Below are positions 4,651-63,887 of a DNA stretch of 64,000 nt, in pieces (the first letter of the stretch is position 1; the number at the start of each line of letters is the position of its first letter). Under the pieces are notes generated by a model. It saw only the letters and a list, made by a program, of their open reading frames with translations. It had not been told where the DNA came from and made no database searches. The stretch comes from Panorpa germanica (lineage: Eukaryota; Arthropoda; Insecta; Mecoptera; Panorpidae), in the NCBI GenBank assembly GCA_963678705.1, contig OY783214.1:13082001-13146000 (forward strand). The letters run 5' to 3'. A program made the translations under genes and the position numbers.

Positions 4651-6104
4651 TTTTACGACCTTCATAAATTATACAAATATTTAAAACGTAATATCCCAAA
4701 TCTGAAATAAAGACTCCCTTTTATAAATGCTGTTACGTAATGCGTCGCCCAAATCGAAGTAACATGGAACATAATACATCGACAAACTAATAAAATATAC
4801 TGATTAGTTTTTATTAATACTGGTGTAACTACATGTTAAATGTATTTGCCTCTCATTCACTCTAACTGCACTCATAACATATGATTCGAACTTTAATTAA
4901 ATTTATATAATGATATCCTTTATGATTGTAAAAATATATAGAACATTCTACCGATAACGCTTACCATATAGCATAACTCTTCATATAATTTTACAAAACA
5001 ATGAATTTCAATGAATTGCAGCTTGTTTTTGAATTCGTGATTAAACAGGACTACTGTTTATCATCACAGTGACCTTCATAAAATCGCGTAACTTTGTTTC
5101 CTAGAACTATTTATATAATTACTTCCTGCTAGCGGAATAAGCTGTGTGCAGATATGCAATTGACCATCCTAACAAAATAATTTTGCTTTCACCATTATAA
5201 CTGACATTTATTTATTTGCATGCATGGTCCTGTACACAGGTCTGACAAAAGGAAGTTTCAAAGTGACTCATATTGAGACTTTTATCACGTGCTTTGTTTT
5301 TAGTTCGACAGGATTGCACCAACTCTACTCTGTTTTGTACATGATTATGCTTGCGTTTTCTAACCTAAATTTTAGTAAAAGTGTCACTGACAAGCAAAAG
5401 TATTCTTGCTATTGATGTAGTAAAGTTTTCAATATTTACATTCATACTACAATATTAAAATTAACTCTTAATTAAACTTAGTACTTCAGTGTTTCTGTCA
5501 TTTTTGACAGATAGTTTTGGCACTTTGTTTACATCGACGCAAGCAAACTTTTTACAATATTCGTGTGCACGTCTTACGGGACTTAATATTGAGTCATTGT
5601 ATTTCTCGCTGTGTATTTATTTATGTTCTATCAGCATTCTTTATATAAATAATTGATAAATGCTTTCGTATGTTTTTGTTTTCTTTATGCGATAGGTCCT
5701 TAAAATATAAACTACATTCGTACGCCTTTTATGATTATTTAAATAAAACATATTTTAGTAACTATTATTTTCACTCTACTTCTACTTCTATGTTTGTAAA
5801 TAGAGTAACAGACCTGCATATAAGATCGTGCTTACTTTATATAGCGATGCTTCTAAACGGGACTTACATTTGTTTCATACAAAGTATTACCAACATTTTA
5901 AACATCAATCATTATATAGATAAAATTAAAAAAGATTATGCAGACATTTTTTCTGTGCTTGCTAATTACCAATGACTATTTTTAATGACGCATCTAACTT
6001 ACCACAATGTTGCACGATATGTATATAGCAACAATGTTTAGTCTATGATTTAATAACTATAGCTATATTATAACACGTAATAATAAACATAAATATTATT
6101 GCAG

Positions 6105-7244
6105 GTGACTGAATTGGATAATTTACCTCTATCCGTGTGCGAACTATGCGCTGCAAGATTAGCCTGTTCCTACGAGCTGATGTCGGACTGTTTACGAGGG
6201 CAGCAGCAATTCGCAGAACAAAAATCATTTTATTATGGTCAAGAGATGAAAATGGAAGAAAGTGAAGTAACAGATTACAGAATAATAAGTAAAGTTGATT
6301 ACGATGACAAAAATATTGAAGTTAAAACATATACAGAGCTCAGTCCAACAAAATCAATAAAATCTGAAGATACTGTCAAAGAAGAACGTCATGAGAAACT
6401 TGTTGAATCTTGCAAGTGTTCTAAGTGCGATGTTTTGAAATACGGAGGTTTGCCTTTGTTGACTGAAGCTATTGAGCAACGGGAGCGCGAACGTGAATCC
6501 GATACACAGTATGCAAGAGACAGTGAAGCGAGGCGTGTGCCTGAAGCTCGGTCGTCGTGTAGTCCTTGCGATACAGAGTGCAACGAGTGTTATCAAACGT
6601 CACATAAAACGATTAGTGCACCGCATGAAGTAAATGATAATAGATATAAGAGTGCATCTGAAAACTACAACGGCCACCCAATGCATAGCTCGTTTCGAAT
6701 AAGTGAAGCCGGTTCAAGAATTGTTCACGATTTTAACGAGTATGCCGAATTAAAAAGCTACCCGAATAACATTGACTACAATTACAATGTTACAAACCTT
6801 GACAGTGTACACTATAAGTCAAAGGATGACTACAGATATGAATCTGCATACTTCCGCGAGCCCGTGAACTACACCAGTGAACAACCGCTTCCTTTGAGCT
6901 GCATCAAAGATGAAAACATACCGGACTTACGTGATAAAACGAGAAGTGTTAAATCAAAAGAAAAGTCTTTACAATGTGAATTTTGTGACAAATTATTTGG
7001 TCACATGGGAGATCTGAATAAACATCGCAGAATTCATACAAATGAGAAACCATATCCGTGCAGAATTTGCGGGAAGAAGTTTGCGCATACTTCAAATTTA
7101 TTACGTCATGAACGAGTGCATTCAGGAGAAAAACCATTTCCTTGCAGCGTTTGCGGAAAAGTTTTTGGAAGAAAAGATAAATTGATAAGCCATACAAAAA
7201 GTAAGTTATGTAAAAAACGGGCGAAGAAATTAATTATTGAATAG
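6105..7244 (+). CDS. ZAD-type C2H2 zinc-finger protein, last exon
   Basis: A 379-codon terminal exon follows a good acceptor (ATTATTGCAG, ending at 6104). It opens with the second half of a ZAD domain: a VTELDNLP stretch, then the CELC cysteine pair and a helix with a conserved Cys. ZAD is the insect zinc-finger-associated dimerisation domain. A long acidic, Ser/Tyr-rich linker follows. Near the C-terminus are three fingers, at about 6974-7036, 7059-7120 and 7143-7205. Fingers 1 and 2 are canonical C-x2-C-x12-H-x3-H, joined by TNEKPYP and SGEKPFP linkers. The third ends H-x5-C (C2HC), followed by a basic tail. The product is probably a nuclear DNA-binding transcription factor. The first ZAD cysteine pair must be on an upstream exon that I could not find, so the gene is incomplete here. 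The family assignment is firm; orthology to a named gene is not. Confidence 0.88.
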   Translation: MTELDNLPLSVCELCAARLACSYELMSDCLRGQQQFAEQKSFYYGQEMKMEESEVTDYRIISKVDYDDKNIEVKTYTELSPTKSIKSEDTVKEERHEKLVESCKCSKCDVLKYGGLPLLTEAIEQRERERESDTQYARDSEARRVPEARSSCSPCDTECNECYQTSHKTISAPHEVNDNRYKSASENYNGHPMHSSFRISEAGSRIVHDFNEYAELKSYPNNIDYNYNVTNLDSVHYKSKDDYRYESAYFREPVNYTSEQPLPLSCIKDENIPDLRDKTRSVKSKEKSLQCEFCDKLFGHMGDLNKHRRIHTNEKPYPCRICGKKFAHTSNLLRHERVHSGEKPFPCSVCGKVFGRKDKLISHTKSKLCKKRAKKLIIE

Positions 7245-9699: not shown

Positions 9700-11113
9700 A
9701 TGATGGACGTATTATCACCTGAATTAATATGGATAGACGGTCGGTGTTATAGAGTTAAGGAGTCAAATATTCCAAGAGAAACTACAGGACCGGATTTTCA
9801 AGAAATATATGAGGTATATGACTCCGGTAAGTTTATAAGACTTTGTGTACATAACATGTAATTCAACAATTCAATCTAATTAATATGAAAATGTAGATGA
9901 ATGCTACGACGAAGACGACGATGAATTTGAAGGGAATATTGAGCACTTGCAAAATGGTAAATCTCGTATACCGATTCATGTTCCACAGTAAGTACTCCTA
10001 ATATATAAAGGAGTAACATTTACAAAATAATTTACAATTTTATCATTTTGTAGAATGTTTTTTGGACAAATAATTGGTTCTAAAGGGTCAATACGAAAAC
10101 GTTTAGAGAATGAAACAAAGACACAAATTAAAATACCCAATGTAGGTTTTGGGGGTGATATTATTATAACTGGACCAACAGATAGATCTGTTATCAAAGC
10201 TAAAAAACGAATTGATCTCATCGTAATGGCAGCTAGGAAAAAACAGCCATTTACACATTTTTTATCGATCCATTTATCAAATCCAGAGATAAAAGAATGC
10301 TACAATGATTTGAAGGTTTACTTAATAAAAAGTAGATAAGGTATTGTTCGAATTGAATGTATTTATTAATCGAAATGTATTACAGAGACAAATAATTGAA
10401 GCAAAGCTACCTGGTATAGATGAGGCACTTTTCCAGTTTAATTATAAACTGCATTTAACGATTGGCGTAATGACTTTACTTGATAACGAAGATCGGGCGA
10501 AAGCAACACGTGTACTCCAAGAATGTAAAGAAGAAGTTATCAAGTACGTTTTGTAATAATGTGAATAGTTATTTTGATTCAATTATTCATAAAAAAAAAT
10601 TCCGATCCTAAAGCCCTATCCTCCAGCAATATGGTGAATTATCAATTCATATGAGTGGGCTCGAATATATGAATGATGACCCAAGTGATGTCTATGTTCT
10701 GTATGGAAAAGTTCATGAAGGTGACAATTGGTCTCAACAAGGAGCTCTGCAAGTACTTTCAGATAATATTGTCGATTTCTTCGTTAAGAAAGGTAAATAA
10801 TAATATTAATATAACTAAGCTACTAAATAGCAGTGCAATCTTTTTATATGTGTTTGTTTCAGGATTAATGCAAAAAGAGTATGAAAAAGTTACACTTCAT
10901 GTAACTTTGCTAAATTCTTCGTTTGCTAGTGCTGCAGCAGAAGGTGAAGTCAAGCCTCCCAGAAAATCGTTTGATGCCAGAGAAATATTGAAATCATTTG
11001 GAGACTTTGAATTTGGAGTACAAAAACTAGATAAAATTCTTTTATCACAGAGGCATACATCTACTGCTGATGGATATTATCAATCGACAAGCTTTGTTGA
11101 CTGCTCTTTATAA
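9700..11113 (+). CDS. ASCC1: Activating signal cointegrator 1 complex subunit 1 (ASCC1)
   Basis: Six exons give an uninterrupted 355-residue protein: 9700-9826, 9897-9987, 10054-10315, 10386-10543, 10614-10792 and 10863-11113. It starts MMDVLSPELIWIDGR, close to the vertebrate ASCC1 start, and its length is typical. A KH domain (exons 2-3) has the GxxG loop in IIGSKGS and a DIIITG strand. The C-terminal 2H-phosphoesterase-like domain (AKAP7/LigT type) begins at KKQPFTHFLS and carries both HxT motifs, KLHLTIG and TLHVTLLN. In other animals ASCC1 works with ASCC2 and the helicase ASCC3 in transcription co-activation, alkylation repair and ribosome quality control. Exon 3 uses a weak GTTTAC donor. 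Exon 5 is placed with its acceptor at 10613, because the later CAG (ending 10625) would shift the frame. A tandem paralog follows 1.4 kb downstream. Confidence 0.93.
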
Positions 11114-12525
11114 TTGTTGTATTTCGAAAACAAAATGATTAAAATAATAAAAATTATTTAGAAAGACGTCACTATTATTTTGTAAGATTCTTATTACGTT
11201 TGTAGCGTATTTCTTTTGTTGTAAATATGATAAATTATGCTTGTTGATAAATCTTGTTTAAAATCCCAGTTAACATTTTGGAGTGAGTCACTTTGCCATC
11301 ATATTGAAGATGCGTGTGATTTTTTTTTGTCATGAAAGAGTTTATTTACAGTTCAGTTTCTCACAGTTGTTCATATGAAATGTCTATTTTATAAGCTACA
11401 AACGGCGAAACCACTCCTCCTGTCGGAATACAAATGAAGATAAGGTTGATGCGAACTATAATTGAAGTGTAATAGTGATAGAAACGTTACAAAAAGGGAC
11501 ACTTCACCAAATTGTTAACTGGGACTTACGTTTACTGCAAAATATTATTTTAAAACATATTTGGTAAACTATTTTTAATGAAACATTACGTCTGTAATAT
11601 TTACTTTTGTTTTTTATAAAAACTTATGTTGTTAATTCTAAAAACACAGTTCGAGAACCTTTTGGTATCACTATGTGTTTATAAGCACTTCTAGTGACAG
11701 TCTAATGCCTGTTCATGACATTGTTCACTTGTGTTTGTTGGTAGTTTATCAAGGTTAATAAAGTTCTATAATAATTTATACAGTTTTTTGTAAGTAGTTC
11801 TCATATTTTACGTAACATTTGTGTTATTATATTGTATTGCAGCTCATGTTTATGTGTCTCAAACCAGGACCGTAACTAGGCATTTAGGATGAACACAAAT
11901 TGGTCTTTCTGGTTAAATAATGAAGCATATTATTTTGACGCCTATCCTTCCACACTTTACAAATTTGTTTTCAATAAAACAGTAAGATATTCGATTTATG
12001 CATTCTATTCACTGTAAACTAAAACATTCCCTTACCTCGGAGGCCCAGGCATTGCCCCTGTCTCAAACTCTCTTTCAATATCTCGATATATAACATATAC
12101 GCACACTAGTCTTTATTCGCACTATACATCATGTCAGAAATAAATTACGTATTAACGAATTATAAGTAGGATGCACCAAGTATCTGTGAATAATAAAAGA
12201 GCAACTTAACTTATAAAATATCACTCGACAGAATTTAAATAAAGAAAAGAACATATCCGGTACCGGATATCCTACTTCTTCCGAGGTTTTTATGTCCAGT
12301 AACCGATACACTGGACACAACCCTTATTATATATATAAATTAATATAAATATAAATTATAATATATGTATTACAACATAACAAATATGTAGCCTTCCTCT
12401 TTTGTTATGTGTGCTAGATTATTTTATTCTCTATTAAAACTATATAGCAAAATGTCAAGATTAATGCAGAAAATAAATTATTATATTATGTGCAATTAAT
12501 TTTTACAGACTAAAATACAGAAATA
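11114..12525. other. Spacer between ASCC1 and its paralog
   Basis: No KH-like exon is detectable here, although KH would be expected upstream of the paralog if it were a full duplicate. A TTTTTACAG acceptor ends just before the paralog's first AUG (at about 12508), suggesting an untranslated 5' exon somewhere in this spacer. A perfect 18-bp palindrome lies at 12253-12270. Confidence 0.5.
12253..12270. repeat. Perfect 18-bp palindrome
   Basis: ATATCCGGTACCGGATAT reads the same on both strands. It sits in the spacer upstream of the ASCC1-like paralog and could be a dimeric protein-binding site or chance. Nothing else supports a function. Confidence 0.45.
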
Positions 12526-13533
12526 ATGGAAATCACTGAAACAACAACAGAAGAATTTATTAAAGCAGATTCACCTAGTGAAAGTGAAAATGCAGCTGCA
12601 ATAGAAGCAAGATACAAACGTCCTTTTACACATTTTTTATCGATTCAAATATCAAATCCAGAAATAAAAAAACGTTATAATGAGTTGAAGGTACTCACAA
12701 CTAATCTACAGCAGTTTTCATAAATTACGTTAGAAGAGTTGCTCTTTCCTTATATTGTAGTTAATTGTTTACAGACCAAAATATTAGAGGGATTTGAAGG
12801 TTTTGACGAAAAACTTTTTCAATCTGAAAATAAACTTCATTTAACTCTCGGGATTTTAAGTTTGGCCGATAAAACAGAGATTGATAAGGCGACGCAAATT
12901 TTAGAAGAATGTAAAGAACAAATAATTGAGTAGGTATTCTTTGCATTCAATAAAAAATTCTGCAATTATCACGCATTTAGATAAAACAATCATTTATTAC
13001 TTAGTCCAATCATACGTAAATCTGGGCCTCTATCTATACATATGGCAGGTCTGCAATATATGAATCGTGACCCTTCAGCCGTTCATATTTTGTACGGTAA
13101 AGTTCACGAAGGACAAAAGGAAGACCACGAAGGACTTCTACAAACATTGGCTGATAATATAGTTAATTTCTTTAATGAGAAAGGTAAGTCTCAGAATATG
13201 TGAATGAAATTGCAACGCTATTTTATCATACAGCATGAAAGAACTTAATTTTATAAACAAGCGATTTTCTTTATAGGATTGATGAAGAAAGAGCGTAAAA
13301 ATGTAACTCTACATGTTACTTTACTGAATACAGTGTTTATAAAGAGAAACATTAAGGGTAAGAAACGACCTAAGTTGAAGGCTTTTGATGCTAGAGAGAT
13401 ATTAAAAACCTTCGAAAATTTTGAATTCGGAGTACAAGAATTAGATATGTTACAATTATCCGAAAGGTCAAATAAAGGACCAGACGGATATTATAAAGCA
13501 ACAAGTTCTGTTGCATGCACCATAGAATGTTAA
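12526..13533 (+). CDS. ASCC1-like paralog lacking the KH domain
   Basis: Four exons (12526-12690, 12775-12929, 13005-13183, 13277-13533) encode 251 residues in one frame. The protein starts MEITETTTEEF and has an acidic Ser/Thr/Glu leader of about 30 residues. It then joins the 2H-phosphoesterase-like domain at YKRPFTHFLS, the counterpart of residue KKQPFTHFLS in ASCC1. Both HxT motifs are intact (KLHLTLG and TLHVTLLN). All three introns match the last three introns of the neighbouring ASCC1 in position and phase, which shows tandem DNA duplication rather than retroposition. The KH domain and the N-terminal ASCC1 exons are absent. The protein may act as a free phosphodiesterase-like domain or compete with ASCC1; its function is unknown. 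The intact frame and retained motifs argue against a pseudogene. Confidence 0.85.
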
Positions 13534-15662: not shown

Positions 15663-18600
15663 CTACTCCTTATGTTGTTTGCCACAAAATCCATTACTTT
15701 TAGATAAATCAGCTGACAAATCAGCCTTAAGAATCTCAATATCTACACTTTTATCAAATCTCTTAGACTCATTTCCAAGTTTACTTAAAAATGGTCGAAG
15801 AATAGGCACGACTAGCACACCAAATAATCCTAGAATGTGTATGAACAGGTACATTTTACTGAAACAGAAAAAGATTACAATGATATTTGTTTTAACAGTT
15901 ATTAAATCTATCAAATACTAAACTTACAGGTAAAGTCGTACTCCAGGCCAAAACTCTAGAAGTACAAATGTGAACGTAGCATACGCCATAAAAATACGTG
16001 TTGCTGTAAATGTCATGGCATCATAGAACATTTTTGTTTCTGTACTGGAGAGGAAATGGTGTCGGAATGTACGACGCATCTGAAATGTAATAAGTACTGT
16101 AAGAAATCTGTGGCAAGCGGGAAGAATAAAATATTTCCGTTCTTATACTTACATTTCTAGCAGCAAGGGTAATTAGAGCACCAGTTGCGAATGTTAAATA
16201 ATAACCAGGATAGAATCCATGCCATAAAGCTGAAAGTGCATATGTTAACAAAGTACCATATTTCTTATCCACTCTTTCATAAACAACCATTCGTAACCAA
16301 CGATTTGTGCCCATATTCCAATTAGAAATACTATCACGGAAGCTTAAACTAAACTGTAAAGGAAAGCAAAATTATTGTTAATTAAATTTGGGATATAATC
16401 GTAGATGTACATCAGAAAATGAAATCAAACGTTACCTCAAATTGCATAATATTAATATTAGAGATCAAATCCCATTTGGCTCGTCCTTTTTCGTCGTAGC
16501 CATTAAAGCCCAGTCCTGAGTTGTTACAAATAGCATCAGCAAGTAGCCATGCGTGGTAGTACTTAAAACGTACTAACATTGTAGCAACCATCAAGAACAG
16601 GAACTTTTGAACTAATGTTGTATTTTCCAAGAAGTCCTCATCTGTAAAAAAAAAAATTGATTATTTAATTTCGTTCCTTGTCTGCTTTGGTTATTGTTTT
16701 TTTTTTGGATATAATTCTCACCTTTTACAGTTTCTATGGGGAATGATGGTATGAATTTTATAAATATTAATGCACACATTAGACTAACGACAACTTTCTT
16801 TACTACAACAACGATTGCAGATGGTTCTAATATGACTTTCTTGCTGTTGGAATTATTATCTGTTCCCTGTGGAGTAACATAATTATATAATAAATAACAT
16901 AAACTAGATACAACAATATTTGTAATTAATTTATACAACCAACTTACATTTGTAGCCGGTTTATGTTTTAAGAATTGTAATCCATCAATAAATTCCATAT
17001 AATCTCTATAAAATACAACTGGACCAGCCATTAAGCCTTGAAAATGCAAAACATAACTGAAGAACTCTAACGGTGATGGTATTCTTCTTACAGCATGATA
17101 CTGTTGTTCTTTTGACATTTCTTTTTCTTCTCTTGTTAAACCATCATGAATACTAAATGCCAAACTTGTTACTTTTTGTGTTATAACCATCAAGGGACCT
17201 ACACATAAAATTTATATAAATCTTCTTGAAACCCCTGGTGTCATAAATTCAAGCAAAGAATACTACACATGCGAAATGTTTGTTGCCTGCAGAAAGCATT
17301 TATAAGGATAATTATCAATTGTTATAATCATGTGTAATTATTATATGGGTCGTAAATTTACCTGTAATATCTAGCGTATATGAACCGTAATCCGTATACT
17401 GCCTGTGCATGTGCACACACGACAAATAAATCAGTGAAACAGCCAGTACCATCCTGCAAGGTACAGAGTTTAGTTAATATTTATATTTTATTATGAGATT
17501 ACTTAATCTTTTTATATAATTTAATGCATTTATCTATGTTTTATAATATGTAATTATATGTATATGCTTTAATTATTACTGTTTTTTTAATTCGTTTCTT
17601 ATATAATAATACTTATAAATTACCTTTGCATGATATGTGGGTCTTGAGTTCGAATGATTATGTAAACCAAAGACGGAAGTCCTGCAATATGAATAGCTTG
17701 CCTGAAATAGAAAAAAAAACATTATATTGGTTACATATACTCTGCCCGTTTACTATCACTTTCTATTTATAAGCTTAACTAAGTGTACAGTATTTATTTC
17801 ATTCAGAGATAAAACATTGTGCATATTGAGGTGAGATGTTACTTAAGTTGCCTATGTTCCAGGCGAGTACAATAGTTGTAGCCGAAAATAGCGGCATTTA
17901 AATATACATATAATGAATACTTAAGTGAAATCTTTTGAATAATTGACCTATTGTTTTATTGCTTTATTTCCCGCGGCAATATAAACTCTGATAATTAAGT
18001 TAGGCCAACAAGAAATGTATTATAATTTTACGCTCTTTTCAATGTAAATTAATGGTAACTAATAATGACTTTCATCTTTATTTTATGTGTGAATAATGTA
18101 CTTACATTCCAAAACAGAAATATCCAAAGAATAACCCCAATGCCAAACCAAATGCATGTCGAATTGCTGCGCTTGTTTTTGTGGGATGAAGTGTTGTGCG
18201 GAAGAAATATGCCAGTAACAAAGCCGACAGTTGGCTGATGAGAAAATTTACCTAAAAATAAAAGACAAAACTTAAGAAATTGTAATTCCTTTTCTTCAAA
18301 AATATTCGTATGGCAATTTACATATAAAAATAAATAGTTCATTTTTTCAATTAATTTTGTCAAACTATATATAATTTTATTTTTGGCAAAGACCATTAAA
18401 GGGTTAGCACTGAGTACTGCGAATTGCATTAGCAATAATGGTATTGGTTCCAGAACTATTGTTTTAGGTATTTGTTAATCATGCTTCGTTGAACACGTAA
18501 TGCGTGGCGTGATAGTGTGACCCAGCTTCCTCTCTTACCCCACTCGCTCTGTGAAACATTATTTCAGAACGTTATTGTGAACAGTGGCGGATTTACCTTT

Positions 18601-50597: not shown

Positions 50598-53062
50598 GCA
50601 GCTAACAATAAATTAGTATTTGCATTTATAAATCATTGGCTAATATTTTTTTTGCATGAGGTTATCTGATTGCTTATCTGACTGAGATTTGTGAAGTCTG
50701 CTTAAGCTACGAGTAGAATTGATAAGATTGTAAAACATACAAAAAAAGACCTGATCCTAAAAAGTATAAATTTACATTACTCTATTTAAGTAAATCAATA
50801 CAAATTCTTAATTTATTTGATGTATTTTTAATTATTTATTATTACAATGGAGTATTGTCAATAAAATGGCAAAGATAATTACTCAAGAAAAAGTTTGCAA
50901 TGTTTGCTGGCCGCAAATTGAATCAAAAAAAGTTTATTTTTTAGAAAATCGATAGTAAAATCACGGTAGTAAGGCGTAAAACATTTATAGCTATTCTGAA
51001 GTAACCAATTAATTGGAATTCTGCTTCTAAAATGGTGATCTATTTTCATATCAATATATTTTATATAAAGCATGGATATTACCTAACATACATCTAATAT
51101 TTTACTTAAGCGAAATATTAACTCTAAAAGGGACTCAATTTTGCTTACAGTATAAAAAGACTTATAAAAATTATATAATTTCTAAAATGGTCTTCTTAAG
51201 AAGTTTTATGATTATGTTATTGCACAAAATGGTGAATTTATTAGAAAAAAAAAGAGATTGTATCAATTATATAGCATAGCTAATGCAAATATTCAGAAAA
51301 TGCAATAATATTCCTGTGATAATATTATAAATATGTGCAATTTTCAATGTAATGCCAATATTTATGTTACCTTATTGTCTCATTCACTATTTATATTATT
51401 ATCAACATATTGTTGAAATATTCAGGTCAGTTTTCATACCAGTATATTGTCTGTTCCTTAGGAATTCAAAATACAATCATCAGAATACATAATGTAACTG
51501 GAATTTGTATTCTTTTGTGTGTGATTTAAATGTTAATATTTTTAAATAATAGAATGAATATCATTAACCCTCTATTGAATGTAGGTGGTTCTGCAAATAC
51601 TTTTACCACTGTTACTAATAACAAATATTTAGTCTTAACATACCGCAATAAACATTTTAAGTATAGTTTCCTTAATACAAAAGTGGCAAACAAATGCATA
51701 AGGCATTTGTTCTAAGACATTAATTAGCGGTATTTCCAAAGCTACAGCAAAAAATATTCTTAGAAGACTATGACTGAAAGATTAAGACAGATATCCTAGA
51801 ATTATAAGTTAGAAGATTATTACATAAGAGAGTGTAGAATAACACAGTATTAGGTAAAAATTAAAATCTGTGCTACTTTTATCCAATGATCCATGGTAGG
51901 ACAGATTTTTTTATTTCTTTACGTATAGCCCCTGGATATATTAACATTTGCGCTTTGTGTTATAACAATCTATTATTATTTTCTATTATACAAACTAATG
52001 TATCTAGGTCAAAATATTTAGGCTTTCACTTGTCTAAAAATAATATGTAACGAGTAATGGTAATTGAAAAATTATATGAATTATTCTAAGGATAAATTTA
52101 TCAGAGTTATGGTAAGAAAATCTGTGTCCGTAACCTTGGAAACTTACGAATTAAAGGAGATATCGCCGAATCATACGAATAATGATTTTTATTCATGTAG
52201 TAATATATAATTAAACATTAACTACTATATCGAGTATGTGTTATAATCTAATTAAAAATAGAAGCGTTATGCTTTCATATAAATTAATATATTTAGGGGA
52301 TAATATATATGTGAGACTTGGACATATCTAGAACATTGTGTCAAATACTATTTGTAAAAAATCATTTTTAATGAAATAAAAAGGATTAAAACTTATAATA
52401 GGCACTGTCTTAATTAAATATTATGAATAAAAAATTTCTTAGTATAACCTACAATCATTTTAATAGAAAATAAACAGCAATTTTTAATGTTATGGATACA
52501 ATTAAATATTAATAACAAATATGATTCGGCAAAAATAACAGAAAACATGATATTTACAAGCCTGGGTTAGTAAAATCAGTTCATTGTACACGAAATGTAA
52601 CATGCAAATATAACCATATTATATTTTAATGAGAATATGTAAAAAGAATATAGAAACTTACATTATATAGCTACTTAAATAAAACACAAGTTTAATCAAT
52701 TGACTACACATTCACATATTTATATAGAAAACAATTTTGACATAAACAGATGATTTTGAAGTGAAATGTAGCATTGACCGAGACAATCCGAGGAAAATAT
52801 AATGTAATTCTTTTCGTTATATATCCGCTTATATTATATTCAAGTTCAAGTAAATAAGTTAAATACATAAGACTCTACATGTTAAAAATTAGTTTCCTAG
52901 CTACCTGTTATTACTATGTCAGCTCTGAAGATAGTAAAGATATCTGCATTATCTTCTTTAAACGTCAATCATAACCTTAAAAATACACAGTTGCTTACAT
53001 TTGTTGTGGTTGCTTGTAGTCAGTTGTGGTTTTATTTTATTTTGATAGAAATAATAATTACA
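50598..53062. other. Intergenic, upstream of wuho
   Basis: AT-rich sequence without recognised exons or repeats. An in-frame AUG at 52916 lies 49 codons before the chosen wuho start; the region between is hydrophobic and unlike the family. Confidence 0.45.
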
Positions 53063-54172
53063 ATGGTTTTAATAGGTTATTGCAATAATCATTTACTACT
53101 TGCCTCTAATATTAATATCGTAATATACAACGCAAATCAGCGAATATTTAAAAGTGTTAAAATAAACGAACCTTCACATGTGCCTAATAATAATGAGGTT
53201 AGTTTGAATAAGAGCTCAAGAAATTTCAATATCACAGCAATTGCTATATCATCTAACTCGAAGACGTTGGCTGCAACAACTGCCGAAAAAAAATTATATA
53301 TTTATCATATTGATGATAAATTAAATGTCAATTTGTTAAAGATCTATGATTTGAATAGGGGCTGCAGTGCACTTCGTTTTAATGAAGATTCTAACTTATT
53401 AATGATAGCTGACAAGGCAGGAGATGTTTACCAATGTACTCAAGAAAATAATTGGTCTCCTACGCTACTTTTAGGCCATTTAAGTATGCTACTAGATATC
53501 CAAATAAGTCCCAGAAATGAATTTGTTATAACATGTGATCGCGATGAAAAGATTAGAGTCAGTTCATATCCTGACACATTTAATATACAGTCTTTCTGCT
53601 TGGGACATGAAGAATACGTATCAGGACTAGCTTTTCTACCTCAAGATAATGATGTCTTAATTTCATGTTCAGGAGATGCCACTATAAAGTGCTGGTTTTA
53701 TAGGACTGGTTTAGAACTTCTCTCTGTAAAATTGCCTCAGCCTGCTAGTTTTATGGAAGTATCTAAAGTAGCTGAAAATCGAAGTCATGTTGCTGTAATT
53801 TTGTATGAAAGTAACACAGTATTCATTTATGAAATAAGTATAAATAATGATTTAAAAAGACTTGAAAGTCAAGAAGTACAACAAATAGAACTGGGCTCTT
53901 GTCCAACAGGATTGGCTTTTGGTGAAAATAGCTTATGGATTGCGGCTACAGATTTGGAAAATGCTATTCTGGAATATAAATATGATAATAATAAATATTT
54001 TAAACAAGAATGTTTAAAAGCCGATGAATTAAAAGATGTTCTTGGTTCTGAGGAAAATCCTAATATCTTTATTTCCACATTATTCAAAACTAAATTTAAC
54101 AACGTTGAAGAATATCATGTAAAGAAGAAACAAAGAATTGAACAGAAGAAATCTACAGCCCGACCTGTATAA
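53063..54172 (+). CDS. wuho: tRNA (guanine-N7)-methyltransferase non-catalytic subunit wuho / WDR4
   Basis: An intronless frame of 369 residues from MVLIGYCNNHLLLASN. WD40-type beta-propeller repeats are present. Family blocks are clear: LMIADKAGDVYQC, LLGHLSMLLDIQISP, ITCDRDEKIRVSSYP, FCLGHEEYVSGLAF and LISCSGDATIKCW. These match WDR4, which pairs with the methyltransferase METTL1 to form m7G46 in tRNAs. In Drosophila the gene is wuho and is needed in the germ line. The C-terminus is basic (KKKQRIEQKK), as usual. I prefer 53063 to the upstream in-frame AUG at 52916, because the extra 49 residues are not family-like and 369 aa is a normal length. The product should be a nuclear and cytoplasmic soluble scaffold. 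Confidence 0.92.
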   Translation: MVLIGYCNNHLLLASNINIVIYNANQRIFKSVKINEPSHVPNNNEVSLNKSSRNFNITAIAISSNSKTLAATTAEKKLYIYHIDDKLNVNLLKIYDLNRGCSALRFNEDSNLLMIADKAGDVYQCTQENNWSPTLLLGHLSMLLDIQISPRNEFVITCDRDEKIRVSSYPDTFNIQSFCLGHEEYVSGLAFLPQDNDVLISCSGDATIKCWFYRTGLELLSVKLPQPASFMEVSKVAENRSHVAVILYESNTVFIYEISINNDLKRLESQEVQQIELGSCPTGLAFGENSLWIAATDLENAILEYKYDNNKYFKQECLKADELKDVLGSEENPNIFISTLFKTKFNNVEEYHVKKKQRIEQKKSTARPV

Positions 54173-55782: not shown

Positions 55783-58700
55783 TCACGCTTGTTTTGGATG
55801 TGCTGCAGGAGGCGGTGGAGGTGCTCGGAAACATTGTAGTAGAAAGGCTGTGTAGATAATGAAAGCTATGGAGATTGCAAATAATGCATACATAAATATA
55901 TTCAGCTCTGGTTGACGGAAACGGTTCTTTCTTAGCCACTCTAATACTTCCTCTTCTGATTTTAGATCACCTATGTTAATAGTAATTTATGAAATAGAAA
56001 TTAAATTCATCAAATATTACATATACATAATTTCTAAGTTTGTACCTCTGTAAATACTAGGAAATCTTTTGCGGAAGTATACTATAGCAGGAAGTTTAGT
56101 TACACCCCATTTTCTAGCATATCTAGGATCAGCCATTTTCACAAATGTAATATCTAAGTTATCCGTTTCTCCATCAATGTTTTCCAGCTTGTCATTCACA
56201 ATTCTGCTTTCTTCATGGTCATTCTCATCTACAATTATATTGAAATAAATAAATTGTAATTTATTATGTTATAGAAAATACGGAATTTTCGACACGAAGT
56301 ATACTTACAGAAAAATACAGTTAAAAATTCATTTTCGTCCAATAATTTATCTAACATTTTTTTATTAACTTCCTCAATTTCGTTCTTAATTTCAAAGACT
56401 TCTTGAGATGTCAACCAAGCAAGAATCTTATCATGCTGGTGCAGATCTCCATCGTAAAACATTGGTACTCTTTTACGGAAATATAACAAAGATGGGAAGT
56501 TAATAACGTTATATTTTTGTGCAGCTTCTGAGCTTCCGATTTTAACGAAGTCAATTCCGAAAAGATCAGCTTCTCCATCAATTTGTTCCAACTCTTCTAA
56601 TATTTCATCACATTCAGGGCAGTCGTCATCATCTGAAATATTATTTTATTGATAATAAATTACTGTTGTCATTTTTAGTGTATTATATTACTTACAGAAG
56701 AACACTGCCAAGAATGGTGATTCATCCAGAAGCCTCTCAAGCATACGGTCATTCACTGATTCGATCTCATCCGCTAGTTCTCGATTATCATCGTCTATCA
56801 ACCACTCGAGGACAGATTCTTCATTTTGCAAATCTCCTTCAAATAACAAAGGATTTCCATTCCTGAAATTATTTTAAAAACATTATCGTAACTATTATAT
56901 TTAAGGTTTTCATAAAATTTAAGAAATATTACCGGAAGTAAACCAGAGCGGGGTAAGTTTTAATGGAATATCTCTTCGCTAACTGAGGGTCCTGAATTTT
57001 CACCATGTGGATTCCAAAAACATCACATTCATCATCAATACGTTCCAATCCTTCCAGAATGTCATCGCAGATTTTACAGGTCAACTTGTCTGCAATTGAC
57101 AAGTCTCCCACTATCCATTGCAATTGTAAAAACATAAAGATAGGAATATATAGTTTGTGTAGTGTGTTGCTGACAAAATGACCGGGATATGTTCACAACA
57201 AGACAACATTTATTGTACAAACACAACATATTTATTAGTTATAACTAATGAACAGTGGTGTAATTTGAATTATTTATAACATATCAGCATTATTAGAACA
57301 AATATGTATATGTTGTTAAACTTAAAGAGATGATAATTATGGAAGTAAAAAAATTATTTTAATGAATTAATTCTGTTATTTATGCAAGAAATGCAAAAAT
57401 TGTAAAAAATGCTTAAGCAAGAAATGTTAACATTACACCACTGATCATAATTATACCTTTCCAGTTTTACCTTTACTTGAAGAACGATGTTTTCACTTAT
57501 AGTACTTTTTGGCAGATTGATCAGATCTACACAAAGCGTACCATTAAAATAATGAAAAGAATATTTAAGCGGACAGAACCTTAGGAAAATGTGTTTTGTG
57601 AACATAACCAATAGTTGCCCAGTAAACCATATTATTTTTAGTGAATTCGAATATGTTTAGAGTTCGTAATGGATTCAAAAACGAACTTGGAGTATCAATG
57701 AATTCACTATTTTATGGTATACTGGATTATGGTTAATATCAAACTGTTTGTTATATAGCGTTGGTGAAATATCAGGATAAGTGATGGACCATGCACGAAA
57801 TAAACTCACAGAAATATACCGCCAGGTATTGGGTTTCTTCTACCATTGATTCTAACATGACACGTGTTATCAATTCAATCCTATCTTCTGTTCTTTGTGT
57901 GATTAACCACTGAAGAACTTCTTCTTCTTCTAATAATGAACCTGCATTAAGAAAAACGTTGAAGTAGTTTTGGAAATATAAAGAAAATACTATCTTAAAT
58001 GTTTTAACCTTCAAATACGTTTGGAATTCCATCTTCGAAATATACCAAAACGGGATAATCAGTGACGCCAAATGCTTCAGCAACACTGAAGTCTTGTGTC
58101 TTCACGAAGGTAATGCCATGGCGATCGCAGTCGTCATCGATGTTCTCCAGTTCTTCTAAGATGCCGGAACATTGATCACATTCATCTCCTTCTGAAACTA
58201 AATGAATCAAACAAGTTAAAACTTGACATCTTATAAAGATTCATTGTTTATCCAGTAAAAACAACATTTACGTAACAATTATGTAAAAGATATTTTAAGT
58301 AGCAAATGTTACGTAAATGTCACGTAAATATGTTTAACAGGTGTTCCCATTGTGTATAATATAATGATTTATTTAATAAAGTGTGTAATAATTAAAAAAA
58401 CATGCAATATCATTCAGCCAAAGGGGATAGACATACGAATCTATAGAAATGTCATGCTTTTAATTCTTCAACAGTTGGGTAGTTTCCTGTTCTTTTACAC
58501 GATATTATTTTATTTCTTATTCATAAGTGTACTGTGTGTAAACAGTGAAAAATGAATGTGAAATTGACTACTTATTATTCTACAGACTTTATTACTACTT
58601 TTGTGACGTTAATTGGGTATGAAAGTCGTGTGGCACCGCTGTCGCAAAATTTAAAAGTAAACTGATTATAAAACAAAGTTTATAATTATTTATTTAACAA

Positions 58701-61097
58701 GTGTTTTAATTATTATAATATTTCTACTGGTTTTAGGTTTAATTACTATCAACTACCCTAGATTGCTAAAAGCAACTCAAAAAATTTTGCTTTAAATATG
58801 TAAAACAAGAGAAACGAATTTGAAAAATTGTATTCCTAAGAATCAGTGACAGTTTCTAGATATTAAGGTAGATAGTTCTATAATATAAGGTATTTATTAA
58901 TTGTTTATACATTACTACTGATTTTATATAATACTTGTTGTTTAGCATTGGGGATTGCAACCAAATTAGTCAATATTTGAACCAATTTTCAAAATCATTG
59001 GAAATTTCCAAGTCTTATATACATTCTGTCGACAGCTATTGTTTTCTTAATATTTTGAGTTACTTTTATTAATTAATATATTTACAATAAATAAATATCA
59101 CAACACTGAGGATAAATTATATTATGATGGATTTTTTGGGGTTGATTTTTATATACCCTCTTCATGTCCATGTGCTTCGTCTTCTGCATGCTCAGCATTT
59201 TCATGTTCTTTCTTAGCACGAGCTTTACGAGCAGCCTTCGAATTGCATATATCACACAAAGTTTTGTTCCCTATGAAAATAGCAATCATACCAATACCAA
59301 GAAGCATTGTTAATAATAAATAAAAATAATTAGTTTAATTAAATAATATTAAAATATAGTCAAACTTTTTATCACATACAAAATATAACATAACTTTATT
59401 AGATATAGAAAACATTCTTGAGTAATATAAAGATCATAAAAGTAGATTCTTAATTTTGCACCATGTTTAAGAAAGTATTTTAACATAACCTTAAAATATG
59501 GTTTGTTAGATTTATTACTGTGTTAAAAATTAACAGTTTATCGGCTTTGTAGAATAAAAAGTACACTAAATTCTTTAGAAGTAAATTGGAATAGAATTGA
59601 AATAGAATGACTCCAATAAGCAACACAAATTGTTCTGTAAAATATTAAAGTAAAGTTCGATGTGAAGTTGTCTAAATGTATACTTTCTCAAACATGGAAG
59701 CCACATTAATAACAATTCAATTCCTTGATGTAAAATCTACGTTCACTGAACATATGGTTGGTATAAATTAAATATATGATGATTGGTCAATAGATGTTTG
59801 TAAAAGAGATAAGCTATCATTAGTTGGTAAGCAAGAATGTAATTAATATTTTTGCAAAAACCTCAAATATAAATAAGAAATAATATTCAAAAAATATATA
59901 ATATAAAAATTAACACCACTTACAGAAATATACTGCTAAAGATTCGGAAGTTTCAATCAACTCAACCAGTTCTTCGCCTTCCAAGGCTTCAATTAGATCA
60001 CCGGATGGGTCTTTCTGTGTTAGAAGCCATTGAAGAAGTTGCTCTTCATCGTAAAGATCCCCTGTGGGTAAATAAATGAAAATTCATTACAAAATTGTCA
60101 ATTAACAGAAAAGTAGAGAGCATTATGTTAAGAACAGTAACAGAGTAGGAAGAGAAAGTGGAAGAAAGAAATATAGAAAAGAAGAGAAAATGGATGTCAA
60201 CAGTATGAAAATAGCGACTGACTAAAACGAAGAGAAATTTCTTGTAAAATGTAACAGTTGGTAACAGGCAGAGGGAGAAAAGGAGAGAGAAGAAGAAAAA
60301 TAGATTTACCCGCATATATAACAGGTTCTTTAGATCCCATTCTGAAAAACAAGACTGCTGGTAAAGCAAAAACACCGAATTCTTTTGCCATTCTCTTGTC
60401 ATCAATTTTCACAAAATTAATACCCGCACCATCAGCTTCATCGTCAATATGTTCAATCTCGGCAAGTACCCTAGGACACTGCTTGCAATCGTCGCTGTCT
60501 GAAATATTACCAATATATGTTAGCATTACTATGATATCACTAAAATCTCCTAATATAGAACTTACAGAAAAACACCGCGAGATAGTCAGATGTCTGCCTG
60601 ATTTTATGAAACATTTTTCTATTAACTCTCTCAATATGATCAGTCAGCTCCATATTTTCTGGATTTGTTAGCCAGTCCAATATTTCTTCTTCATCATCAA
60701 TATCACCATCATAATTAATATATTTTCCTTTGCGGAAATACGTAATACCAGGTGGGTTACGGTAACCAAATTTCTTCGCCATTAAACGATCACTTGTTTG
60801 AACTATTTTGATACCATATTCGGAGGCTTCATCATCAATTAATTCAATATGGCGAAGAATTCTTGGACTCTCTGGATCTTCATCTCTGTCTGGAAAAGGA
60901 ACAGTTCACCTTCAGTTAAACACTGAACATGATAAAATAAATACCCTTTTATGTAACACACTTACAGAAGACTACTGCTAAGAATTCCTTCGTCTCGATA
61001 TATTTCAGGAGTTTGTCTCTGTCTATTTCTTCAATACTAGCGTCATTCTTCTGCTTCACCATCCAACTTAACACCAGCTTTTCATCAGTAAGATCTC
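55783..61097 (-). CDS. Multi-thioredoxin-fold protein with C-terminal membrane anchor (3' part)
   Basis: Exons on the minus strand: 60966-61097, 60566-60889, 60310-60498, 59924-60061, 58009-58197, 57810-57941, 56933-57089, 56696-56862, 56309-56632, 56046-56228 and 55783-55970. They read as 706 residues with the 5' end missing. The protein is a chain of one half unit and six further thioredoxin-like units of about 108 residues. A typical unit runs YxxxCxxCxxILEELExIDD, then FVK, a GVxxxPALVYFRK strand with the cis-Pro, YxGDL, VLxWL and FLAVFF. Cys motifs are CKQC, CDQC, CKIC and CPEC; two units have none. The last exon has one hydrophobic segment (FMYALFAISIAFIIYTAFLL) and a short Pro-rich tail. 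The fold points to the PDI/calsequestrin-like group in the secretory pathway, but I do not recognise the gene. Strong acidity is consistent with calcium binding; this is inference. Intron placement differs between units. Confidence 0.82.
57240..57455. mobile_element. Short TIR element in a thioredoxin-gene intron
   Basis: CAGTGGTGTAAT at 57253-57264 is the exact reverse complement of ATTACACCACTG at 57432-57443. The match extends outward with a few mismatches to about 25 bp (TATAACTAATGAACAG against TATAATTATGATCAG). About 215 bp in all, with no coding content. It lies in the intron between exons 57810-57941 and 56933-57089, so it is a MITE-like insertion or a hairpin. Confidence 0.45.
59149..59270 (-). 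CDS. Alternative terminal exon with CDIC and acidic/His tail
   Basis: After acceptor TTTTCATAG (ending 59271), the exon completes a T-initial codon (TGG) and reads 39 residues, NKTLCDICNSKAARKARAKK first, then a Glu/His-rich end (EDEAHGHEEGI) and TAA. The phase is exactly that of the thioredoxin-unit exons on either side. It would replace the next unit after exon 59924-60061, giving a product without the membrane anchor. An AATAAA on this strand at 59065-59070 lies about 80 nt past the stop. It begins like the next thioredoxin unit, including a CxxC, and then departs from it. I call it an alternative 3' end; transcript evidence is lacking. Confidence 0.65.
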
Positions 61098-62627
61098 CTA
61101 CATATATTTTGTATGGAAAGAAATAATTTCCAAATATTAATCTGTTTCACAAGGTACAATTAAGTAATATTGATTGAAAGCTGTTCTGCAATGGCTTATA
61201 CTTGTCTTTAGAAATATTTGTGTAATATTTATTCTCCCAAATAATTAAAAACTCTGCTGATAAATGAGTAAACTCACCTTATTCGATGATAGTTCTTAAG
61301 TTTAAGATGTAAAATAGGTCCTTAGATTATTTGTAATATTTAAATAGGTATTATTTTAGCAATATAAAACATTTTATTTTAATAATGAATAACGTGTTAC
61401 AAGGTTTACAATAGTTTTGCGTCAATGTGCTCCTTTTAAATAATGCGGTAATCATTTTAAATAAACCATTTAATTGTTAATTAACAGTTCGTATTGTTTG
61501 TAACTATTATAGTTTATTAATAATGACAACCACAACTATTAAATTTAGTGAATAATAACAGACATTTACGCAAGAAAATCTACACGTGATTAACTAAAAT
61601 AAAATAAAAATGGCCGCCATAAAGTTACATACAAGAATGTCTAATATCTACGAAACAGCGATAAGTATTGATAAAAATAAATCAGGGACGATCTAGATGT
61701 TAAATGGATTGATGCAACCCAGATTTGTTCATTTTAGTAAATGATATTACTAATAAATAAACTTATTTCCGTTTCCCATTAGGTAAAGCTTACTACAAAA
61801 GGTTAAGAATCATTCATTTAGTTGTAACAATATGCCGGACGTAACAACGTTCATAAATAATTTAACAAACTCAACATTTTCTTATTTATTTATATATACA
61901 ATTATTTATAGTAAAATATAGTCATTATTATAATTAAAATTAATTTAAAATGCGCGATCATAAGCTATATAAGTAATATGTTTCAATAAAGAACGCACTT
62001 ATCTTAATATCGGTTAATAAGTACACATAGTAAATAACGTCGTCACGGTTGTAATATAAAACGTTCACACAATATTGCAACTCGAAGCTAAAACTTATAA
62101 GTAACATATGGTATAAACAAAATGGCGATTAAACCAAAGTAAAGAATACAAATTATACTCGTAAAATAAAATAATCAAAATGAAATTATTTAAAGAAACT
62201 TTAATCAAAATGTAATTTATTTGCATTAGTTCCAGGTGAGTGTTTTTTTTTTGTCATCAGTGACACAATCTGATAATATTTTTATAAAAGTCTGTAAGAG
62301 TTTCCCTGATTTTCTTCTGTAGCTTCAAAGAATAGAAGCAAAATTTTGATTGAATCTCAATTAGGTTACAGTCATATAAGTAGTTCATTGTTAAAATTTA
62401 TTAACAAAAAATATCAATAAATATTAAAATGAAAATACGTGCACATAACATGTTTGCATCATTGTACTTCATTATCAGTTGGTAAGAGATCATTCAGAGA
62501 GTTAGAGAGAGAGAGAGAAAGTACAAGATCAGTTCTGTTAGCAGCCGAACTATGCTTTGTGATGCCTCAAGATGGTGCGATACGAAGGCACATGAATCTA
62601 ACGACGTGATACGGGAAATAAAACCCG
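61098..62627. other. Intronic or intergenic stretch without recognised exons
   Basis: The half-unit exon 60966-61097 needs an upstream exon ending in G (phase 1), and I found no thioredoxin-type exon here. A short GA-rich run lies at about 62496-62520. AATAAA on the minus strand at 62397-62402 is about 225 nt beyond the stop of the exon at 62628-62944. Confidence 0.45.
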
Positions 62628-62944
62628 TCACCACCATTTAATGTATTTACCAATTCCAAAGAACCCTTTTTTTCCTTTATTTGCTGCCTTTTCGGCTTTG
62701 ACAGCAACGGAGTTCTTCTTGTTATCGATAACCCTTGTTGGTGCAGCTGGTTTTGGTGGAGATTGACGAGCTGACGAGCTTACAGGAGCTGCAGGTTTCT
62801 TTGGTGACGCCAACTTGGAGGCCGTCATCTTGGCCACCTTTGTAGCTCCAGCCAGTTTAGTAGGACAGCACTGATAGGGCTCATAGGAAGCAGGTTTGGG
62901 TAGTTGAGTTTTTCCTCCCAGCCCCACGTAGAAACAGCCATCGC
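62628..62944 (-). CDS. Alternative terminal exon with CDGC and Lys/Ala/Pro-rich tail
   Basis: Acceptor CTGACTGCAG (ending 62945) is followed by GC, which completes a T-initial codon to TGC and starts the reading CDGCFYVGLGGKTQLPKP. It continues as a basic Lys-, Ala- and Pro-rich segment (KKPAAP, PPKPAAP, KAANKGKKG) to GIGKYIKWW and TGA. It has 104 full residues, counting from Asp. The entry phase and the immediate CxxC match the thioredoxin-unit exons of the gene to its left, so I interpret it as another alternative C-terminus of that gene. It could instead be the normal 3' end of a separate upstream gene beyond 64 kb. Confidence 0.55.
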
Positions 62945-63283
62945 CTGCAGTCAGTAAACATTATGTCAAAAAAATATCCCGTATTTATAAAAGAATCATA
63001 AAAAACGCAAAACTATATATTATTCCTAACGCTATTTGACAACGTGCAGGAATATATCCATATTAATTCCAACCAAAGTTTACATTTGAAGCGCATTTAA
63101 CTGTATAACAATAGTAGCATTACAAATTCAAATTACAATATATATTTTTTTGACTTAAAATAAAAAAATTTGGAACAATTTGTTCTTGTTAGTAGCCGAA
63201 ATTAAATCGTACAAGTATTGTCAGTTATTAGACAAAAAGCTATCTGACAAATTGTTCGACTTCCTGCAGACGACAACTGTTAA

Positions 63284-63466
63284 TTGAAAGTGTGCGGCCA
63301 TGCATTCGGAGAAATAGACAGAACAAAGTATAAAAACAGGATTGGAGGCATGCAGAAAGATTGGACAACACCTTGCCACGTGTGCCACGTTGTCAAGACA
63401 CGGGAAAAATGGGAAGAAATCCGCATGAAACAGTCGTACGGTCCTTTATTTAACAGTACACAGTAA
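63284..63466 (+). pseudogene. Possible retrotransposon-derived fragment
   Basis: A 60-codon frame of less AT-rich sequence contains RIGGMQKDW, then KTREKWEEIR. The order (Lys-Asp-Trp, then Arg-x-x-Trp) resembles the last residues of LINE reverse-transcriptase proteins, but the match is short and I would not rely on it. Chance is a fair alternative. Confidence 0.2.
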
Positions 63467-63590
63467 ATGGTAATGTAATCACTTAAAATTTATGTTTGTT
63501 TGAAAAGCAATTGGAATGCAATCAAAACTTTAAATGCTTCAGTTGACGAATTAATTTATAGATGTTATTCGAGCGTGTTGTCAGTTTTAC

Positions 63591-63887
63591 CTGGGAAGGA
63601 GTTTTTAAATTTATTATTGTTAGTTTTATCATCGTCGTCATCATCATCACCATCATCATCGTCGTCATCATCATCATCATCGTCATCATCATCATCATCA
63701 TCGTCATCATCATCCTCATCGTCGTCATCATCATCATCATCGTCGTCATCCTCATCGTCATCCTCATCATCATCCTCATCATCGTCATCATCATCATCAT
63801 TATCGTCGTCATCATCATCATCATCATCATTATCGTCATCATCTTCATTGCTGTCATTATCATTATCCTCGTTGGAATCATCATTAC
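63591..63887 (-). CDS. Candidate poly-Asp exon
   Basis: On the minus strand, acceptor CCTGCAG (ending 63888) opens a 297-nt frame. It reads NDDSNEDNDNDSNED and then runs of Asp broken only by Glu, Asn and one Gly, ending KTNNNKFKNSFPG at a CCCAG/GTAAAA donor. Entry and exit phases (both 1) equal those of the thioredoxin-unit exons to the left. Its final Gly codon would join the next exon's GDLTDEKLV as in other units. Within the triplet tract the changes are mostly GAT to GAC, silent in this frame only. That favours coding, but a plain microsatellite cannot be excluded. Confidence 0.45.
63619..63870. repeat. (TCA/TCG)n trinucleotide repeat
   Basis: Nearly continuous trinucleotide tract of ATC, GTC and CTC units with occasional ATT, TTC or ACC. 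It is the DNA basis of the poly-Asp reading on the minus strand and of spurious Ser-, Ile- and Met-rich frames in the other phases. Confidence 0.9.

What the first reader, a model, noticed from the sequence alone, without database searches (positions are those of the whole stretch)
55783..63887. Thioredoxin-repeat gene with three possible C-termini
The chain of thioredoxin units ends in a membrane anchor (55783-55970). Two further exons (59149-59270 and 62628-62944) share the exact splice phase of a unit start, begin with their own CxxC (CDIC, CDGC), leave the thioredoxin pattern and stop. Each has AATAAA on the coding strand 80-230 nt later. This would yield an anchored form, a soluble form with a Glu/His-rich tail and a soluble form with a Lys/Ala/Pro-rich tail. 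I know of no described gene with this arrangement, though I cannot search.
Basis: partly seen in the sequence, partly recalled or inferred. Interest (0 to 1): 0.82.

Follow-up and report, generated by a model that had tools for sequence, protein, structure and literature searches.

The report
Insect thioredoxin-chain gene, swappable tails
An insect gene builds a long, strongly acidic chain of thioredoxin-like units and appears to finish it with one of four different tails, one of them mostly aspartate as in calsequestrin, the muscle calcium-storage protein that insects are reported to lack.

Summary
On the minus strand a gene runs from a signal-peptide exon about 25 kb beyond the window (89103) to a membrane-anchor exon (55970-55783): 25 exons, 15 thioredoxin units, 23 of 24 introns in phase 1. 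There are four candidate C-termini, not three. It follows a short exon (64217-64167) that completes thioredoxin unit 9 and ends at the domain boundary. A full-length alternative of that exon (61097-60966) carries the chain on to the anchor. The Asp and Lys/Ala/Pro exons lie between these two. The Glu/His exon is, on sequence alone, not beyond chance.

The predicted Asp-tailed form (1103 aa, pI 4.05) matches rabbit calsequestrin in charge density (-21 against -20 per 100 residues). By sequence it is not calsequestrin: the units score nearest to protein disulfide isomerase. The likely Drosophila counterpart (recalled, untested) is l(2)01289/hulk, reported as striated-muscle specific. My reading: a splice-tailored chaperone and calcium buffer of the muscle reticulum. 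No transcript, calcium measurement or second species was available.

The parts
63565..63887 (-). Asp-rich tail exon (read to its stop); could instead end at a donor at 63591 as a phase 1-1 cassette
   Evidence: phase-1 acceptor CTGCAG|GT; 106 residues, 67% Asp; AATAAA 115 nt after the stop. Acceptor in top 0.17% of 1,152 other intronic AGs.
62628..62944 (-). Lys/Ala/Pro-rich tail exon, 104 residues, stop TGA
   Evidence: phase-1 acceptor (top 1.5%); GC 0.479 exceeds all 23,186 intronic stretches of that length; only match in the genome at E up to 1 is itself.
60966..61097 (-). B9L: full-length second-half exon of unit 9, alternative to the short B9s off the window (64217-64167)
   Evidence: profile match (B9L was one of the 14 sequences in that profile, B9s was not); weak acceptor (2.5) like that of B9s (2.0).
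60566..60889 (-). Unit 10 exon (no CxxC)
   Evidence: profile hit.
60310..60498 (-). Unit 11 first-half exon (CKQC)
   Evidence: CxxC list.
59924..60061 (-). Unit 11 second-half exon; branch point to the Glu/His tail or to unit 12
59149..59270 (-). Glu/His-rich tail exon with CDIC, 39 residues, stop TAA
   Evidence: phase 1; AATAAA 79 nt after the stop; lies in a 1,726-nt intron where 17 of 24 introns are 63-80 nt. Not beyond chance on frame and acceptor alone.
58009..58197 (-). Unit 12 first-half exon (CDQC); acceptor set at 58197 because 58191 would give an in-frame TAA
57810..57941 (-). Unit 12 second-half exon
56933..57089 (-). Unit 13 first exon (CKIC); followed by the only phase-2 intron
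56696..56862 (-). Unit 13 second exon
56309..56632 (-). Unit 14 exon (CPEC)
   Evidence: Pfam Thioredoxin_2 E 0.0025 for the open frame alone, below Pfam's cut-off.
56046..56228 (-). Unit 15 first-half exon (no CxxC)
55783..55970 (-). Membrane-anchor exon: completes unit 15, one transmembrane helix, Pro-rich tail ending HPKQA

Best explanation
This is an insect gene for a secretory-pathway protein: a signal peptide, then a chain of strongly acidic thioredoxin-fold units. Its transcripts stop at one of several alternative terminal exons. After unit 9 the splicing machinery picks either the short exon B9s, which finishes the thioredoxin domain and leads to an Asp-rich tail and/or a Lys/Ala/Pro-rich tail, or the long exon B9L, which carries the chain on. 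After unit 11 it can exit into a Glu/His-rich tail. Otherwise it runs to unit 15 and a membrane anchor. I infer that the Asp-tailed form is a soluble, calsequestrin-like low-affinity calcium buffer of the muscle reticulum, and that the anchored form fixes the same chain to the membrane. The CxxC units (7 of 15) would keep some disulfide-exchange or chaperone activity. Shown by sequence: units, phases, signal peptide, anchor, candidate tail exons and their splice signals. Inferred: that the splice choices occur, reticulum location, calcium binding, muscle role.
For: Anatomy: 25 exons in the anchored form, 15 units, 24 GT-AG introns of which 23 are phase 1; signal-peptide exon with a phase-1 donor. 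Pfam Thioredoxin E 9.7e-39 over the Asp isoform. Alternative exons sit in two of the seven introns longer than 80 nt: 3,245 nt (B9s, Asp, Lys/Ala/Pro) and 1,726 nt (Glu/His); the other 17 of 24 are 63-80 nt. B9s matches the second-half profile (domain E 4.4e-5) and stops at the domain end seen in the 15-unit alignment. B9s and B9L both have acceptors below the constitutive median (2.0 and 2.5 against 6.3). Asp tract: deviations from GAT fall 7/2/24 over codon positions 1/2/3, p 5.6e-6 if rates are equal, and none shifts the frame. Charge: mature Asp isoform net -21.2 per 100 residues, rabbit CASQ1 -20.3 (360-residue chain without the last tail residues). Context: no calsequestrin found in insects (PMC7582152, passages); Asp-rich C-terminus and acidity as the basis of calsequestrin buffering (PMC8080761, passages and section 14); Drosophila l(2)01289 striated-muscle specific (PMC8331185, passages).
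Against: No transcript and no second species was available. The codon-position bias of the Asp tract also fits an antisense poly-Ser frame (TCN), and repeat copying breaks independence of the triplets. The Asp exon has a usable donor, so it may be an internal cassette. The Glu/His exon is within chance. B9s scores -1.9 bits over 16 codons, and synonymous-codon scores of the tail exons are near zero or negative. By sequence the units are closer to PDI than to calsequestrin (hhalign to CASQ1: probability 24.6, though pairwise E 0.00079), and 7 of 15 carry CxxC, which CASQ1 lacks (its letters). No C-terminus ends in a KDEL-type signal, so retention in the reticulum is unexplained. The 2020 survey says invertebrate-type calsequestrins have few acidic C-terminal residues (PMC7582152, passages), and the C. 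elegans calsequestrin is not essential for contraction (PMC8080761, section 14). Drosophila CG9432 knockdown alters lipid droplets in S2 cells (PMC5362240, passages), which points beyond muscle.
Confidence: 0.5

Rival explanations
1. Same alternative tails, but the protein is a multi-domain PDI-type redox chaperone. The tails only set solubility, partner choice or location, and the acidity is incidental.
For: Best profile matches in the PDB are PDI chains (3idv E 5.8e-15); 7 of 15 units keep CxxC, six of them four residues and one six residues after the junction aromatic; Drosophila CG9432 is called a protein disulfide isomerase (PMC5362240, passages).
Against: None of the CxxC motifs is CGHC; 8 of 15 units have no CxxC; no KDEL-type ending; 26% Asp+Glu over the nine-unit chain plus a 67% Asp tail is hard to explain by redox work.
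Confidence: 0.3
2. Only the membrane-anchored form is real. The Asp exon is a microsatellite, and the other two are chance open frames or exons of other transcripts.
For: The Glu/His exon is matched by 5 other intronic AGs on frame and acceptor; codon score of B9s is -1.9 bits and synonymous codon scores of the tail exons are near zero or negative; GC of the Asp exon is not unusual (641 of 23,144 stretches as high); AATAAA is common.
Against: A truncated unit-9 exon with its own donor sits just upstream; Asp and Lys/Ala/Pro acceptors score above the constitutive median; the GC of the Lys/Ala/Pro exon exceeds every intronic stretch; the exons lie in two of the long introns. The two pure (GAT)10 arrays found elsewhere are short and flanked by stops in frame.
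Confidence: 0.15
3. The Asp exon is an internal cassette spliced to the Lys/Ala/Pro exon (1,200 aa form), giving a tail with a long acidic and then a basic part rather than two separate tails.
For: Donor CAG|GTAAAA at 63591, phase 1 to 1; the joined frame is open to the Lys/Ala/Pro stop.
Against: The donor is mediocre (12% of 1,441 intronic GTs score as well); the exon also reads on to its own stop with AATAAA 115 nt later.
Confidence: 0.3

Closest known systems
Drosophila l(2)01289 / CG9432 (hulk, hlk)
   Same: Listed as a thioredoxin-like-domain gene (PMC2777252, passages) and described as striated-muscle specific (PMC8331185, passages). I recall it as a many-unit thioredoxin protein with many isoforms.
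   Different: Orthology, unit number and tails were not compared: no insect protein set was available. No alternative tails or calcium-storage role appeared in the passages read.
Calsequestrin (CASQ1/CASQ2)
   Same: Tandem thioredoxin folds, very acidic, C-terminal domain running straight into an Asp-rich tail; near-equal charge density.
   Different: Nine units rather than three; 3 of the 9 keep CxxC; no Pfam calsequestrin match among the families shown; hhalign of the units against CASQ1 gives probability 24.6, pairwise E 0.00079.
Protein disulfide isomerases (PDI, PDIA4, ERp44)
   Same: Signal peptide, multiple thioredoxin domains, CxxC in some units, best sequence match.
   Different: No CGHC, no KDEL-type ending, far more units, alternative tails including an anchor.
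TXNDC16 (ERp90; alternative name recalled)
   Same: Pfam TXNDC16_N matches at E 7.5e-22, four stretches.
   Different: Three general thioredoxin models score better in the same scan; no further comparison made.

Membership tests
Thioredoxin-fold repeat protein | Significant match of repeated units to thioredoxin models | tested here: met
   Pfam Thioredoxin E 9.7e-39, 8 stretches (Asp isoform); 1.5e-23, 4 stretches (unit 9 second half to anchor).
Calsequestrin | Sequence match to Pfam PF01216 or CASQ1 | tested here: not met
   PF01216 not among the 25 of 26 families shown for the Asp isoform, nor among the 23 for the second protein; hhalign to CASQ1 probability 24.6, pairwise E 0.00079; no CASQ among the 60 shown of 231 PDB matches.
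Calsequestrin | Three thioredoxin domains without CxxC | tested here: not met
   Asp form has nine units, 3 with CxxC.
Calsequestrin | Asp-rich C-terminal tail directly after the last thioredoxin domain | tested here: met
   As predicted from B9s joined to the Asp exon; splice junction not shown.
Calsequestrin | High-capacity calcium binding and calcium-dependent polymerisation in muscle reticulum | not testable with these tools
   Needs protein.
Protein disulfide isomerase | Thioredoxin domain with CGHC active site | tested here: not met
   CxxC are CVTC, CKKC, CESC, CKQC, CDQC, CKIC, CPEC.
Protein disulfide isomerase | Signal peptide | tested here: met
   MVPRFILVLLLVTGLGFTDA in exon 1, hydrophobic stretch at residues 1-19; cleavage site judged by eye.
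Protein disulfide isomerase | KDEL-type C-terminus | tested here: not met
   Endings HPKQA, HEEGI, DNTLE, YIKWW.
l(2)01289/hulk orthologue | Reciprocal best match with the Drosophila protein | not testable with these tools
   No insect protein set held; link rests on recall and on gene descriptions in papers.

The most novel reading that the evidence does not exclude
Insects lost calsequestrin but rebuilt its architecture from a PDI-like thioredoxin repeat gene. By swapping terminal exons a single gene supplies an Asp-tailed soluble calcium buffer, other soluble forms with basic or Glu/His tails, and a membrane-anchored form: jobs that vertebrate muscle divides among calsequestrin, HRC and junctional anchor proteins.
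Probability: 0.27. Interest if true: 0.87.

Novelty: new variant of a known kind. Interest (0 to 1): 0.62.

Why it matters
A 2020 survey found no calsequestrin in insects and suggested that arthropods may not require high-capacity calcium stores (PMC7582152, passages). A thioredoxin chain with a removable Asp tail and calsequestrin-like charge, whose likely Drosophila counterpart is a muscle gene, gives a specific, testable candidate for the missing buffer, and a possible case of the same architecture arising by splicing in another branch of the thioredoxin family.

Tried and rejected
Relatives: viral-contig scans with the unit alignment (132 pattern stretches, none a relative) and with unit 5 (21, none) found nothing. 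The scan with the Lys/Ala/Pro tail (19 stretches) gave one match of 24 residues, 58% identical, E 2e-5, in the query's Pro-rich part; I set it aside as composition-driven without reading the locus. A genome-contig scan failed because the alignment was too variable and was not repeated.

Calsequestrin in this genome: neither PF01216 nor CASQ1 matched anything at E up to 10. The search has no positive control: PF01216 rang in 0 of the 14 control genomes. The exon-wise search does find other thioredoxin-family genes here (40 matches), but none of the 40 is an exon of this gene, so it can miss genes split like this one. I count the negative as weak support for absence.

Structure: AlphaFold2 on the single exon of unit 14 (a circularly permuted module, 8-row alignment) gave mean pLDDT 71.8 and no Foldseek match at E 0.001 or better (78 at E up to 10). 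Uninformative, I think because one exon does not hold a whole domain. RNA fold around B9L: nothing special (z 0.95).

Rejected: B9s as a recent duplicate of B9L (8 of 16 identical, whereas B6 has 10). Acceptor 58191 for unit 12 (in-frame stop; the script ended on it). AATAAA as strong evidence.

Among the titles and abstract starts listed I saw none on an insect calsequestrin substitute; several searches held more papers than were listed. In PMC13171102 and PMC13322953 I only looked for terms; calsequestrin and 01289 occur in neither. The '01289' in PMC3315481 is part of a DOI in its reference list.

Full report
What was checked. The window lies in a 464-Mb genome held as 249 contigs, at C11:13082001-13146000. 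Contig C249 carries a mitochondrial stretch that I read, from memory of such proteins, as ND2, COI and COII of an insect; the order was not settled. I fetched 40 kb upstream and built the gene on the minus strand. Coordinates above 64000 are the window's numbering carried on: C11 position = 13082000 + coordinate.

Gene model. Exon 1 (89103-88911) carries a signal peptide and ends in a phase-1 donor. The chain then runs through 15 units to the anchor exon 55970-55783. The anchored form is 1,686 aa, pI 4.24, net charge -235. All 24 introns are GT-AG and 23 are phase 1. Seventeen are 63-80 nt; the other seven are 15,752, 5,172, 3,245, 1,726, 720, 248 and 173 nt. Most units are split into a first half (active-site helix to the strands after cis-Pro) and a second half (last helix, linker and first strands of the next unit). 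Mean column identity over the 15 units is 54%. Pfam Thioredoxin matches the Asp isoform at 9.7e-39.

The branch after unit 9. The first half of unit 9 (64525-64343) is followed by a short second-half exon, B9s (64217-64167, NLRNEKKVLQWLIDQK), which matches a profile built from the 14 other second halves (domain E 4.4e-5). It stops where the thioredoxin domain ends in the alignment and has its own donor. Next come the Asp exon (63887-63565) and the Lys/Ala/Pro exon (62944-62628), and only then a full second-half exon, B9L (61097-60966), which continues to unit 10. The simple reading is that B9s and B9L are alternatives: B9s closes the domain and exits to a tail; B9L reads on. Both have acceptors weaker than the constitutive median (2.0 and 2.5 against 6.3; constitutive range -3.0 to 13.8), while the Asp and Lys/Ala/Pro acceptors score 9.9 and 7.8. 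B9s is too short for its codon use to help (-1.9 bits over 16 codons).

The Asp exon. To its own stop it adds 106 residues, 67% Asp, with a longest Asp/Glu run of 49. In the tract, 33 deviations from GAT fall 7, 2 and 24 on codon positions 1, 2 and 3 (81 triplets, p 5.6e-6 for equal rates) and no change shifts the frame. Two cautions: an antisense poly-Ser frame (TCN) would show the same position bias, and triplets copied by slippage are not independent. Its GC is not unusual (641 of 23,144 intronic stretches as high). The search for perfect (GAT)10 found two other arrays in the genome, short, with stop codons in frame nearby; interrupted arrays like this one would not be found that way. The exon also has a possible donor (63591, phase 1), so it could be a cassette spliced to the Lys/Ala/Pro exon.

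The other tails. The Lys/Ala/Pro exon (104 residues, net +15 per 100) has a GC content above all 23,186 intronic stretches of equal length and a codon score positive in its frame only (10.6 bits, against -16.5 and -18.7). The Glu/His exon (39 residues, CDIC) sits in the 1,726-nt intron. It scores 12.8 bits in frame (against -6.9 and -21.8), but five other intronic AGs pass the same frame-plus-acceptor filter, so sequence alone does not carry it. Synonymous-codon scores of the tail exons are near zero or negative (0.7, 0.2 and -4.5 bits) and do not help. Each of these two tails has only itself as a match in this genome at E up to 1.

How it probably works. The signal peptide sends the chain into the reticulum. 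The mature nine-unit part is 26% Asp+Glu; with the Asp tail the mature protein has net charge -21.2 per 100 residues, close to rabbit CASQ1 at -20.3. In calsequestrin, acidity and the C-terminal Asp-rich stretch give high-capacity calcium binding, and that stretch binds triadin and junctin through KEKE motifs (PMC8080761, passages and section 14). Calsequestrin was not found in insects (PMC7582152, passages). Drosophila l(2)01289 (CG9432), listed as having a thioredoxin-like domain (PMC2777252, passages) and recalled by me as a many-unit thioredoxin gene, is described as striated-muscle specific and was named hulk (PMC8331185, passages). Together these suggest a calsequestrin-like buffer made by splicing. 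Every step from RNA onward is inference.

What speaks against it. Seven of 15 units keep CxxC at about the right place, so a redox or chaperone role, alone or alongside, is a serious rival. Knockdown of CG9432 alters lipid droplets in S2 cells (PMC5362240, passages), outside muscle. Invertebrate-type calsequestrins are said to have few acidic C-terminal residues (PMC7582152, passages), and the C. elegans protein is not essential for contraction (PMC8080761, section 14), so the need for such a buffer is itself open. No form ends in a KDEL-type signal.

Membership. By sequence this is a thioredoxin-repeat protein nearest to PDI, not a calsequestrin: no PF01216 among the families shown, and hhalign to CASQ1 gives probability 24.6 with a pairwise E of 0.00079, a faint thioredoxin-level likeness. 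It also lacks CGHC and any KDEL-type ending. It may work like calsequestrin without being one.

Verdict. I rate it a new variant of a known kind.

Noticed in passing
C1, C3, C6, C10, C11, C12, C18, C21 of the own genome: Fourteen of 15 COI matches lie off contig C249, five of them with TAA or TAG stops: likely nuclear copies of mitochondrial DNA.
   Followed up: no
window 10031-11113 and 12514-13533 (+): Two neighbouring, similar genes that look like ASCC1 (name recalled): a KH domain in the first (E 8.5e-9) and an AKAP7 ligase-like domain in the second (E 2.9e-17). Possible tandem duplicate; the frame at 12514-12723 of the second gave no Pfam match.
   Followed up: partly
window 16021-17211 (-): MBOAT acyltransferase exons (E 2.4e-16 and 8.5e-11).
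   Followed up: partly
L016:3054-3500 (+) and L016:871-1335 (-), in intron 1 of the gene: Mariner-type transposase fragment (Pfam HTH of Mos1, E 3.2e-8) and an open frame that looks like a LINE end (no Pfam match; from memory).
   Followed up: partly
window 57809-57090 (intron of 720 nt between units 12 and 13) and 72661-67490 (5,172 nt, off the window): Two more introns far longer than the usual 63-80 nt; the second-half profile and the frame-plus-acceptor filter showed no further exon in them, so their length is unexplained.
   Followed up: partly
window 6093-7244 (+) and 52901-54172 (+): A C2H2 zinc-finger gene (E 6.9e-15) and a WD40 gene (PF00400 E 8.4e-13) that meets the thioredoxin gene tail to tail.
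   Followed up: no
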